A stretch of DNA of 64,000 nt from an uncultured Acetobacteraceae bacterium (GTDB lineage Bacteria; Pseudomonadota; Alphaproteobacteria; Acetobacterales; Acetobacteraceae), in NCBI GenBank assembly GCA_903918315.1, contig CAIXEA010000231.1, forward strand, positions 1 to 64,000. Reading direction: 5' to 3'. The notes beneath the pieces were generated by a model. The model saw only the letters and a program-made list of their open reading frames with translations, made no database searches and was not told the DNA's origin. Positions 43,193 to 46,215 of this stretch are shown in pieces (within the stretch, counting starts at the first letter, position 1; each line of letters begins with the position of its first letter). Position numbers and translations under genes: made by a program.

Positions 43193-44386
43193 TTACCCCA
43201 AAATCTCCATCGCCGCCCGGGCCAGCGCCTGCACGCCGAAGCCGATGCTGCGCTCATCCGGCTGATAGGCCGAGTTGTGCAGCCGATCACGCCGCCCGGG
43301 TTGGGAGGAGCCGACGCGGAGCTGGAAGCCGGGCACGAGGTTGGCCATCAGCGCGAAATCCTCGCCGCCGAGATTGGCCTCGCCCTCGGTGATCGCGTCA
43401 TCGCCGAACTGCGCCCGGATCGCGGCCACGGCGGGCAGGACGACCTTGTCGTCGTTGCGCAGGATGGGCATGCCGCGGCGGTAATCGACCTCGCATTGCA
43501 CGCGCATGCCCTCCGCGACGCCGGCGGCCAGACGCTTGATCGCGGCCTCCGCGATGTCGCGGGCGCGGGCGTTCAGGGTGCGGACGGTGCCTTTGATGGA
43601 GCAGGTGTCGGGGATGATGTTGTACGTCGTGCCGCCGGTGATGGCGCCGACGGTGACGACGACGGGGTGCATGGCCGAAACCTCCCGCGAGACCACCATC
43701 TGCAGCTGCGTCACCAGATGCGCCGCCGCCACGATCGGATCGACCGTGGTATGCGGATAGGCCGCGTGCCCCGACTTGCCGCGCACCACGATGTCGAACC
43801 GGTCGGAGGCCGCGAGCGTCGGCCCGCGCACGAAGCCGAACTGGCCCGCCGGCATTTCCGGCTGGTTGTGCAGGGTCAGCGCCATGTCGATGCTTGGGTT
43901 GTCCATCACCCCGGCATCGATCATGGCCTGCATTCCGCCGAGGCCTTCTTCCGCTGGTTGGAACACCAGCTTCACCGTGCCCGCCAGTTGCGGCGCGAGT
44001 TGCCGCAGCACCGCGGCGACGCCGAGCAAGGTTGTGGTGTGGATGTCATGCCCGCAGGCATGCATCTTCCCCTCATGCTCGCTCGCGAAGGCCAGCCCGG
44101 TCTTCTCCAGAATCGGCAGCGCGTCCATGTCGGCACGAATGGCGAGGACCGGGCCGGGCCGTCCGCCCTCGATCAGGCCGACGACGCCGGTCTTGCCGAT
44201 ACCGGTCTGGTGCGGAATGCCGAGCCGGGTGAGTTCGGCGGCGACGATGCCGGCGGTGCGCACTTCCTCGAACCCGAGTTCCGGATGTGCGTGGATGTCG
44301 CGGCGGATTTCGATGAGGCCGGCTTCGATCTGCTCGGTGAGGCCGCGGATGATGGGGCCGGGGTCGTTGCTGCGGGCGGGGTCCAT
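43193..44386 (-). CDS. M20-family amidohydrolase (hippurate hydrolase-like)
   Basis: A 397-residue zinc hydrolase of the M20D group, which removes acyl groups from amino acids or related amides. Metal ligands and catalytic residues are in MHACGHDIHTT, QPAEEGLGG and L-T-L-H-N-Q-P, and E-A-N-L-G-G-E-D-F-A near the end. The RRDIHAHPELGFEE opening is typical. The preferred ATG at 44386 has AGGA upstream. The substrate is unspecified. It follows the selenoprotein gene by 78 bases on the same strand. Confidence 0.93.
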   Translation of the reverse strand: MDPARSNDPGPIIRGLTEQIEAGLIEIRRDIHAHPELGFEEVRTAGIVAAELTRLGIPHQTGIGKTGVVGLIEGGRPGPVLAIRADMDALPILEKTGLAFASEHEGKMHACGHDIHTTTLLGVAAVLRQLAPQLAGTVKLVFQPAEEGLGGMQAMIDAGVMDNPSIDMALTLHNQPEMPAGQFGFVRGPTLAASDRFDIVVRGKSGHAAYPHTTVDPIVAAAHLVTQLQMVVSREVSAMHPVVVTVGAITGGTTYNIIPDTCSIKGTVRTLNARARDIAEAAIKRLAAGVAEGMRVQCEVDYRRGMPILRNDDKVVLPAVAAIRAQFGDDAITEGEANLGGEDFALMANLVPGFQLRVGSSQPGRRDRLHNSAYQPDERSIGFGVQALARAAMEILG

Positions 44387-44464
44387 GGTGGGATGTTCCT
44401 GATGCGTTTGGCGCATCATGGGAAGCTGGGGCAGGTGGGGCAAGATGCGGGACAATTGCGCGGA

Positions 44465-44686
44465 TCAACTGGCGATCATGGCCGGCACCTCCGCCTTGGT
44501 CGGGAAGCGCCCGGTGGCTTTCTTGGAGTACCCTAACCGCCCATCCACGGTGATCTCAAACACCCCGCCGCCCGATTGCCGCAGGCTGACGGTGGCGGCT
44601 GGTTGCGCTTCCAACAGCTGGTCGCGGGCCACACGGGCGCGCGGCTCATAGCCTCACATGCCGCAATATTCGATTTCGATCCGCAT
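44465..44686 (-). CDS. SelW/SelT/SelH-family (Rdx) selenoprotein, TGA read as selenocysteine
   Basis: A 73-residue thioredoxin-like redox protein, readable only if codon 11 (TGA, 44654-44656) is selenocysteine. It begins MRIEIEYCGM, then U-G-Y-E-P-R-A; this is the C-x-x-U redox motif of SelW. The rest fits the Rdx family: R-D-Q-L-L, G-G-V-F-E-I-T-V-D-G, and Y-S-K-K-A-T-G-R-F-P. The frame stays open on both sides of the TGA. GAGGAG is eight bases before this ATG; an overlapping ATG in another frame has poor spacing. A hairpin follows the TGA. The normal stop is also TGA, at 44465. Standard gene calling would miss or truncate it. Confidence 0.85.
44616..44656 (-). promoter_or_regulatory. Candidate bacterial SECIS element
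   Basis: Directly after the in-frame TGA the minus-strand RNA can fold into an imperfect hairpin. The lower stem is GGCU with AGCU (one G-U), then a small internal loop, then CGCG with CGCG, one C-C mismatch, GCC with GGC, and an apical loop CGUGU. The loop starts 18 nt after the UGA with G in its second position, which fits the published bacterial SECIS pattern of a G in the first two loop bases. The fold was drawn by hand and its energy was not calculated. Confidence 0.6.
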
Positions 44687-44790: not shown

Positions 44791-46215
44791 ATGACCGCAT
44801 CGCGCATCGTCCCCGTGATCCTCTCTGGCGGCTCGGGCACCCGGCTGTGGCCGGTCTCGCGGGAGAGTTTTCCGAAGCAACTCTGGCCGCTGGTGTCGGA
44901 CCGGACCATGATCCAGGAAACCGCCTTGCGCGCCGCCGGACCGGATTTCGCGCCGCCGATCGTGGTGTGCAATCAGGAGCATCGGTTTCTGATCGCGGAG
45001 CAACTGCGCCAGGCGGGGATCGAGGGTGCGCAGATCATGCTCGAACCCGCCGGCCGCAACAGCGCCCCGGCCATCGCCGCCGCGGCCGTGCTGGTGGCGG
45101 AAACCGACCCCGACGCGGTGCTCTGGATGATGGCGGCGGATGCCTCCATCGCCGATGTGCCGGCGTTGCTGACCGCGCTGGGCCATGCCGCCACCGCCGC
45201 CCGCGCCGGGCGCTTCGTCACCTTCGGCATGCAGCCGACGGGGCCGGAGACGGGATACGGCTACATCGAACAGGGCGCTGAACTGGCGGACGCGCCGGGC
45301 GTGTTCGCGGTTGCTCGTTTCGTCGAGAAGCCCGATGCGGTCACCGCCGCGCGGCTGATCGCGGACGGCAAGCATCTTTGGAACTCCGGCATGTTCGTGT
45401 TCACGGCGCGCACGCTGCTGGAAGAGCTGGATGCCCATGCCCCCGACGTGCTGCCGAGCGTGCGCCAGTCTGTGGCGGAACGCAGCGGCGACCTGGATTT
45501 CATTCGCCTGGGTGTGGACGCGTTCAAGGCGACGCCGTCGATCAGCCTCGACTACGCGGTCGCCGAACGGACGTCGCGCGCCGCCGTGGTGCCGGCCGCC
45601 ATCGGCTGGTCCGATGTCGGCAGCTGGAGCGCGCTGTGGGAACTCGGCGCCAAGGATGCGGCCGGCAACGTCACCCAGGGCGATGTCGTGCTGGAAGAGG
45701 CCGAGAACTGCTACGTCCGCACCGATGGCAAGGTGACCGCCGTGGTGGGCCTGAAAGACCTGGTGCTGGTGGTGACCGAGGACGCGGTGCTGGCAATGGA
45801 CCGATCCAAAGCGCAGGACGTGAAGAAGATCGTCGATCGCCTGAAAGCCGCCAAACGGCCGGAGGCCACGGCGCATAACCGCGGCCATCGCCCCTGGGGC
45901 TTCTATGAAAGCCTGATCCAGGGCGACCGCTTCCAGGTCAAGCGCATCGTGGTGCATCCCGGCCGCCAGCTGTCGCTGCAAAGCCATTACCACCGGGCCG
46001 AACATTGGGTGGTCGTGAACGGCACCGCCCGCGTGACCCGCGACAAAGACGTCATGATCCTGCGAGAGAATGAGAGCGTCTACCTGCCGCTCGGCTGCGT
46101 GCACCGGCTGGAAAATCCGGGTAGAATTCCGTTGACCCTGATCGAGGTTCAGTCCGGCGCCTATCTTGGAGAAGACGATATCGTCCGGCTGGAAGACACC
46201 TACGGCCGGGCCTGA
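44791..46215 (+). CDS. manC: Mannose-1-phosphate guanylyltransferase / mannose-6-phosphate isomerase
   Basis: A 474-residue bifunctional enzyme making GDP-mannose for surface polysaccharide. The nucleotidyltransferase motif is VILSGGSGTRLWPVSR and FPKQLWPL near the N-terminus, with VARFVEKPD and WNSGMFVF further on. The C-terminal cupin isomerase domain (about residues 360-474) contains GRQLSLQSHYHRAEHWVVV. The ATG at 44791 is preferred to a GTG 33 bases upstream. The start is 104 bases from the divergent selenoprotein gene. Confidence 0.94.
   Translation: MTASRIVPVILSGGSGTRLWPVSRESFPKQLWPLVSDRTMIQETALRAAGPDFAPPIVVCNQEHRFLIAEQLRQAGIEGAQIMLEPAGRNSAPAIAAAAVLVAETDPDAVLWMMAADASIADVPALLTALGHAATAARAGRFVTFGMQPTGPETGYGYIEQGAELADAPGVFAVARFVEKPDAVTAARLIADGKHLWNSGMFVFTARTLLEELDAHAPDVLPSVRQSVAERSGDLDFIRLGVDAFKATPSISLDYAVAERTSRAAVVPAAIGWSDVGSWSALWELGAKDAAGNVTQGDVVLEEAENCYVRTDGKVTAVVGLKDLVLVVTEDAVLAMDRSKAQDVKKIVDRLKAAKRPEATAHNRGHRPWGFYESLIQGDRFQVKRIVVHPGRQLSLQSHYHRAEHWVVVNGTARVTRDKDVMILRENESVYLPLGCVHRLENPGRIPLTLIEVQSGAYLGEDDIVRLEDTYGRA

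What the first reader, a model, noticed from the sequence alone, without database searches (positions are those of the whole stretch)
44465..44686. Hidden SelW-like selenoprotein gene with in-frame TGA
Seen: a GAGGAG-led frame encodes an Rdx-family protein whose C-x-x-U position is TGA, and family motifs continue on both sides (I-E-Y-C-G-M before, F-E-I-T-V-D-G and S-K-K-A-T-G-R-F-P after). A second stop in the right place gives the normal family length. Known: SelW-type proteins carry C-x-x-U or C-x-x-C. Inference: the TGA encodes selenocysteine, so the organism should possess selA, selB, selC and selD. It heads a leftward gene run with an M20 amidohydrolase.
Basis: partly seen in the sequence, partly recalled or inferred. 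Interest (0 to 1): 0.85.

Follow-up and report, generated by a model that had tools for sequence, protein, structure and literature searches.

The report
SelW-like selenoprotein gene with in-frame UGA
A small redox-protein gene that seems to be cut by a stop codon is very probably a real selenoprotein gene, because the same stop codon is kept in every copy examined in its genus and the genome carries the genes that read it as selenocysteine; it is a new member of a well-known family.

Summary
Observation confirmed, interpretation supported. On the minus strand, 44465-44686 encodes a 73-residue Rdx/SelW protein whose C-x-x-U position (residue 11, 44654-44656) is TGA. Pfam Rdx matches across it at 68 bits; the modelled fold is that of solved SelW-related proteins. 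The genome, of the same genus as Rhodopila globiformis, has tRNA-Sec beside selA, selD, and two selB genes. Of 33 genomes of the genus 19 have the gene, all 19 with exactly one TGA; sequence beyond it is under purifying selection. TGA-bearing SelW, UGSC or FdhN genes occur in 26 of 29 genomes with tRNA-Sec or SelB and 0 of 4 without. 75 of 80 named relatives have TGA. SelW-like is among the commonest prokaryotic selenoprotein families in print: a new member of a known kind. Weak point: no SECIS hairpin could be shown convincingly, though the same count succeeds on the genus's UGSC genes. Most novel lead: a second SelB, 41% identical to the first, that co-occurs with one UGSC gene cluster.

The parts
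44465..44686 (-). selW-like gene, 73 residues, C-G-M-U motif; both stops are TGA (first inferred Sec, last a stop)
44654..44656 (-). in-frame TGA, residue 11, inferred selenocysteine codon
44695..44700 (-). GAGGAG, likely ribosome-binding site, 8 bases before the ATG
   Evidence: sequence; inference
44624..44642 (-). candidate SECIS apical hairpin (44636-44642 with 44624-44630, one C-C mismatch, loop CGTGT); not proven, and the minimum-energy fold of the window sequence prefers another stem
   Evidence: weak
43193..44386 (-). M20-family peptidase/amidohydrolase downstream on the same strand (longest ORF starts TTG at 44455; ATG at 44384-44386 taken here)
44791..46215 (+). mannose-1-phosphate guanylyltransferase / mannose-6-phosphate isomerase type gene (NTP_transferase plus MannoseP_isomer), divergent neighbour also present in 25 of 80 named selW loci

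Best explanation
It is a SelW-like selenoprotein gene. During translation SelB, carrying Sec-tRNA-Sec made by SelA from SelD's selenophosphate, reads the UGA at codon 11 as selenocysteine, helped by an RNA element just downstream; the product is a 73-residue thioredoxin-like protein with a C-x-x-U redox site, most likely a thiol/selenol oxidoreductase. Shown: the frame, the family, a confident fold model, the conservation of the TGA and of the sequence beyond it, and the presence of the four sel genes. Inferred: actual Sec insertion, the SECIS and the redox function (established knowledge of the Sec pathway and of the SelW family).
For: Frame and motif; Rdx 68 bits over cut-off 22.6, TIGR02174 56 over 34.2; tRNA-Sec, SelA, SelB, SelD; both SelBs have the GTPase, SelB barrel and C-terminal winged-helix domains; 19 of 19 genus members have exactly one TGA, at the aligned residue, with family length; 15 of these 19 also end with TGA, so TGA is an ordinary stop as well; dN/dS beyond the TGA 0.14 against the nearest relative L026, median 0.22 over 170 pairs, of which 64 have dS under 1; in 299 genomes of the family 74 have an Rdx match: 33 with TGA, 40 without a stop, 1 a fragment without the site, and 29 of 30 stop-free loci read have C-x-x-C; 75 of 80 named relatives have TGA, 4 TGC, 1 lacks the site (part of these are the same assemblies as the 19); TGA-bearing SelW, UGSC or FdhN in 26 of 29 genomes with tRNA-Sec (E <= 1e-9) or SelB (E <= 1e-80) and 0 of 4 without, Fisher p 0.0009; model pLDDT 95.1, best PDB match 2fa8, TM 0.91 by query length.
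Against: No convincing SECIS: the window stretch folds no better than dinucleotide shuffles (z 0.11); over 19 members the mean z against synonymous shuffles is -0.45, with 4 of 19 below -1; one candidate stem has no covariation beyond shuffles (score reached by 473 of 500), the other a weak one (32 of 500), while the count on UGSC genes is clear (0 of 500). The scan over 75 relatives beats 60 of 60 synonymous permutations, but that null removes relatedness. SelW alone against machinery gives only p 0.024. Of the 19 SelW genomes 2 lack a tRNA-Sec hit and 3 a SelB hit (none lacks both), and one of the four negative genomes is 68% complete. The relatedness of the genomes is not corrected for. NF041051 is missed, 79.7 against 88 bits. 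No protein evidence.
Confidence: 0.95

Rival explanations
1. A decayed gene or a sequencing error: TGA replaces a Cys codon by mutation or miscall.
For: Stop-free C-x-x-C members exist in the same family of bacteria; the window is from a draft assembly of 241 contigs.
Against: TGA at the same codon in 19 of 19 genus members and 75 of 80 named relatives, purifying selection beyond it, full Sec machinery.
Confidence: 0.01
2. TGA is read as Trp or another ordinary residue (changed code or near-cognate read-through) rather than Sec.
For: Conservation of the frame alone would look the same.
Against: TGA also ends this gene and 15 of the 19 genus copies in all; the site is Cys in stop-free homologues; tRNA-Sec or SelB accompany every TGA-bearing SelW, UGSC or FdhN gene found in the genus.
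Confidence: 0.02
3. The gene is real, but this copy or the sel genes are contamination in the assembly.
For: Estimated contamination 1.38%; selA and selC lie on a 9,961-base contig, selD on one of 6,758.
Against: tRNA-Sec in 27 of 33 and SelB in 25 of 33 genus members; selW lies on an 85-kb contig beside a guanylyltransferase-type gene, as in relatives.
Confidence: 0.02

Closest known systems
SelW-like bacterial selenoproteins (Sargasso Sea, GOS and genome surveys; Pfam PF10262 Rdx, NCBIfam TIGR02174)
   Same: Rdx profile, C-x-x-U motif near the N terminus; the GOS survey lists SelW-like, motif CxxU, with 427 Sec and 56 Cys members (PMC2398784, passages)
   Different: An Acetobacteraceae member; no difference of kind found
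Rhodopila globiformis DSM 161 SelW (L185)
   Same: Same TGA position, 66% identity
   Different: In a cultured species, so testable; no guanylyltransferase match in its fetched stretch
Agrobacterium Atu0228, PDB 2fa8
   Same: Fold: TM 0.91, 39% identity in the structural alignment
   Different: Longer chain, 105 residues
C-x-x-C Rdx proteins of other Acetobacteraceae genomes (L068-L097)
   Same: Family and site
   Different: Cys instead of Sec in 29 of 30 loci (one not read by my pattern); identity 37-40% for the five best printed

Membership tests
SelW-like / Rdx selenoprotein | Match to the Rdx profile over its cut-off | tested here: met
   68 against 22.6 bits; TIGR02174 56 against 34.2
SelW-like / Rdx selenoprotein | C-x-x-U motif with TGA at U | tested here: met
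SelW-like / Rdx selenoprotein | Fold of solved SelW-related proteins | tested here: met
   model pLDDT 95.1; 23 PDB chains at E <= 0.001 from eight entries (2fa8, 2obk, 2oka, 3dex, 2ojl, 2p0g, 2ljk, 2npb), the same eight that lead the sequence search
SelW-like / Rdx selenoprotein | Sec machinery in the genome | tested here: met
SelW-like / Rdx selenoprotein | Bacterial SECIS hairpin after the UGA | tested here: inconclusive
   negative; weak; suggestive
SelW-like / Rdx selenoprotein | Selenium in the protein; redox activity | not testable with these tools
   needs bench work
NF041051 SelTWH_Campy equivalog | Score over 88 bits | tested here: not met
   79.7 bits
UGSC family (two further TGA genes of this genome) | Score over 125 bits and U-G-S-C motif | tested here: inconclusive
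   G000:C8 copy 135.6 bits, over, and G000:C124 copy 93.3 bits (100.9 for the translated frame), under; both show UGSC

The most novel reading that the evidence does not exclude
In this genus a second selenocysteine elongation factor (SelB type B', 41% identical to the other and with the same domains) may belong to a transferable module with one UGSC selenoprotein (UGSC-2) and a thioredoxin-reductase-like flavoprotein, so that one tRNA-Sec and one SelA serve two SelBs, possibly with divided client preferences. B' occurs in 6 of 33 genomes (four by the tree, G023 and G025 by BLAST), and all six have UGSC-2, which is otherwise found only in G026; in G000 and G025 both genes lie on one contig. 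Against it: the p of 6e-6 ignores relatedness, a divergent G028 SelB that groups with B' has no UGSC-2, the UGSC-2 hairpin loop resembles that of other UGSC genes, and SelW occurs in genomes that show only type A or only type B.
Probability: 0.3. Interest if true: 0.55.

Novelty: new member of a known kind. Interest (0 to 1): 0.3.

Why it matters
A gene finder that treats TGA only as a stop will miss or split this gene; it is one of at least three TGA-bearing genes in this genome (SelW and two UGSC). A 2006 survey wrote that FdhA was the only selenoprotein of the alphaproteobacterial Sec-decoders it covered (PMC1794560, passages); in this genus SelW (19 of 33 genomes) and UGSC (25 of 33) carry the TGA more often than FdhN (6 of 33). 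A cultured member, R. globiformis, carries the gene, so it can be tested.

Tried and rejected
SECIS. The RNAalifold consensus ran into bases upstream of the TGA and had no pair with changes on both sides. Stem columns 24-30/35-41 of A1 were no better than shuffles (score reached by 473 of 500). Stem 27-33/39-45 was weak: covariation score reached by 32 of 500 shuffles, cells with changes on both sides by 48 of 500, other measures by 116 or more of 500; adding two outer pairs changed little. Rfam found nothing in the window at gathering thresholds.

Further TGA genes. A first all-frame BLAST scan was swamped by antisense frames and dropped; a scan with a codon-composition filter showed a UGSC gene and an FdhN gene among many false frames. 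The idea that FdhA is always Cys in the genus (TIGR01591, no stop in any listed match, 31 of 33 genomes matching) was wrong as a general claim: TIGR01553 shows TGA in 6 of 7 matching genomes, the seventh (G020) being stop-free and without tRNA-Sec or SelB hits, and G003 has an FdhA-like frame with TGA (not counted among the 26).

SelB. The idea that each SelB type serves its own selenoprotein failed for SelW: G006, G012, G013, G022 show only type A, and G002, G007, G014, G017, G026 only type B (at E <= 1e-80), and all nine have SelW. In the first SelB tree three rows were wrong frames; it was rebuilt.

Papers. Passages only were seen of PMC1794560, PMC2398784, PMC13188914, PMC5029168, PMC8124441, PMC4342817 and PMC1780047; all others only in search listings. 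'selenoprotein' with 'Acetobacteraceae' gave two unrelated papers by title, 'Rhodopila' with 'selenocysteine' none. For two SelBs, one search gave none and six, of which I looked into two; passages of PMC4342817 speak of one bacterial SelB duplication (two with CysN), so a second bacterial SelB as such may not be new.

Full report
Observation. The stretch 44465-44686 on the minus strand is an Rdx frame interrupted by one TGA at residue 11 and closed by a second TGA. A GAGGAG lies 8 bases before the ATG. Pfam Rdx covers residues 2-71 at 68 bits. NCBIfam TIGR02174 gives 56 bits over its cut-off of 34.2; the equivalog NF041051 is missed, 79.7 against 88. It is the only Rdx match in the 5.04-Mb genome at E <= 0.001.

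The organism. Genus-mate G002 is very probably Rhodopila globiformis DSM 161: its selW contig has the same length, 127,631 bases, as the named record. Most of the closest named relatives are Acetobacteraceae.

The machinery. The genome has a tRNA-Sec with anticodon tca at C97:3663-3754, directly behind selA on the same strand (C97:3824-4912). SelD (297 bits) is the C-terminal part of a frame whose N-terminal part is a pyridine nucleotide-disulphide oxidoreductase; by my reading its active site has Cys. Two full-length SelB genes lie on C16 and C124; they are 41% identical and both have the GTPase, SelB barrel and winged-helix domains.

Conservation. Of 33 genus members 19 have SelW, each with exactly one TGA at the aligned codon. 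Of these 19, 17 have a tRNA-Sec hit and 16 a SelB hit; none lacks both. Four genomes have neither tRNA-Sec (E <= 1e-9) nor SelB (E <= 1e-80): G019, G020, G024, G027. None of the four has a TGA-bearing SelW, UGSC or FdhN gene, against 26 of the other 29 (Fisher p 0.0009; for SelW alone 0.024). G019 is only 68% complete, and relatedness is not corrected for. Beyond the TGA the nearest pair has dN 0.042 and dS 0.293. In 299 genomes of the family 74 have an Rdx match: 40 stop-free, 33 with TGA and one fragment lacking the site. Of 30 stop-free loci fetched, 29 show C-x-x-C; one was not read by the pattern. Of the best 80 named relatives (84 found) 75 have TGA, 4 TGC, and one lacks the site. Several of these are the same assemblies as genus members.

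Structure. AlphaFold2 on an alignment of 20 sequences gives pLDDT 95.1 (the tools write C for U). Foldseek finds 23 PDB chains at E <= 0.001 from eight entries, the same eight that lead the sequence search, among them mouse SelW 2npb.

The SECIS question. Bacterial SECIS hairpins lie just after the UGA (PMC1794560, passage). In the window the 42-base stretch folds no better than shuffles (z 0.11), and over 19 genus members the mean z against synonymous shuffles is -0.45. One candidate stem does not covary beyond shuffles; the other does so weakly, its score being reached by 32 of 500. As a positive control, 24 UGSC sequences form a 7-bp stem with a 5-base loop in 96.9% of cells, with changes on both sides at two pairs; 0 of 500 shuffles reach the covariation score or the cells paired, though 75 of 500 reach the number of such pairs. 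A helix scan over 75 SelW relatives exceeds 60 of 60 column-wise synonymous permutations, but that null removes relatedness and composition differences. So the SelW element remains open; the coding constraint and high G+C may hide it.

Surroundings. A guanylyltransferase-type gene (Pfam NTP_transferase and MannoseP_isomer) faces selW here and is matched in 25 of 80 named loci; M20 is matched in 6 of 80. Many of these loci are short or from other phyla, so both are lower bounds.

Other TGA genes. The genome has two UGSC-family matches with one TGA each (C8, 135.6 bits, over the cut-off of 125; C124, 93.3 bits, under it). In the genus 25 of 33 genomes have a TGA-bearing UGSC match. FdhN (TIGR01553, E <= 1e-200) has TGA in six genomes and is stop-free in G020, which lacks tRNA-Sec and SelB hits.

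Two SelBs. Eight of 33 genomes have two SelB matches at E <= 1e-80. The tree separates types A, B and B', with G003 and G008 apart; some deep forks are open. B' (G000, G021, G029, G031 by the tree; G023, a fragment, and G025 by BLAST) coincides with UGSC-2, found in those six and G026. A divergent copy in G028 groups with B' (98/97) on a long branch and has no UGSC-2; it was not counted in the test. UGSC-2 lies beside a thioredoxin-reductase-like frame in 4 of 7 loci by my reading (L126, L295, L296, L299; Pfam tested on L126 only) and beside related 320-390-residue frames, cut short in L299, in 5 of 7 (L293, L295, L296, L298, L299), one of which (L296) has no Pfam match. In G025 UGSC-2 and SelB B' are 1.7 kb apart between matches, in G000 about 8 kb. 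This is a lead, not a result.

Comparison with what is known. SelW-like was the most numerous prokaryotic selenoprotein family in the GOS table (427 Sec, 56 Cys; PMC2398784, passages) and is named in later surveys (PMC5029168, PMC13188914, passages). The gene is therefore an ordinary member of a known family, in a lineage for which my two searches found no earlier description.

Verdict. Observation confirmed; interpretation supported at 0.95; new member of a known kind; interest 0.3.

Noticed in passing
G000:C16 (L011:1465-3390 minus) and G000:C124 (L012:1501-3390 plus): Two SelB genes, 41% identical, both with complete domain sets, with one tRNA-Sec over cut-off and one SelA match in the genome; 8 of 33 genus members have two SelB matches.
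   Followed up: partly
L126:154-696 minus (G000:C124) and G000:C8:14316-14741: Two UGSC-family genes with in-frame TGA; the first is about 8 kb from the second SelB and next to a pyridine nucleotide-disulphide oxidoreductase frame.
   Followed up: partly
UGSC genes of the genus, positions 15-33 counted from the T of the TGA (alignment A4): A clear SECIS-like 7-bp hairpin with compensatory changes, unlike SelW.
   Followed up: yes
L289 (G020:C105) against L284-L288, L290, L291: FdhN is stop-free in a genome without tRNA-Sec and SelB hits and TGA-bearing in six others, a natural Sec/Cys contrast.
   Followed up: partly
L192, L227, L236, L246, L250, L253: TGA-bearing SelW relatives in records titled Filomicrobium, Poribacteria, Planctomycetota, Rossellomorea, Planomicrobium and Bacillus.
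   Followed up: no
G008:C128 and G003:C60 (L141, L142): A distinct SelB type with the tRNA-Sec on the same contig and strand, about 120 bases behind the SelB match in G008; both stand apart from the other SelBs in the tree.
   Followed up: no
G000:C65 (L019:298-2523): SelD is fused behind a pyridine nucleotide-disulphide oxidoreductase domain.
   Followed up: no
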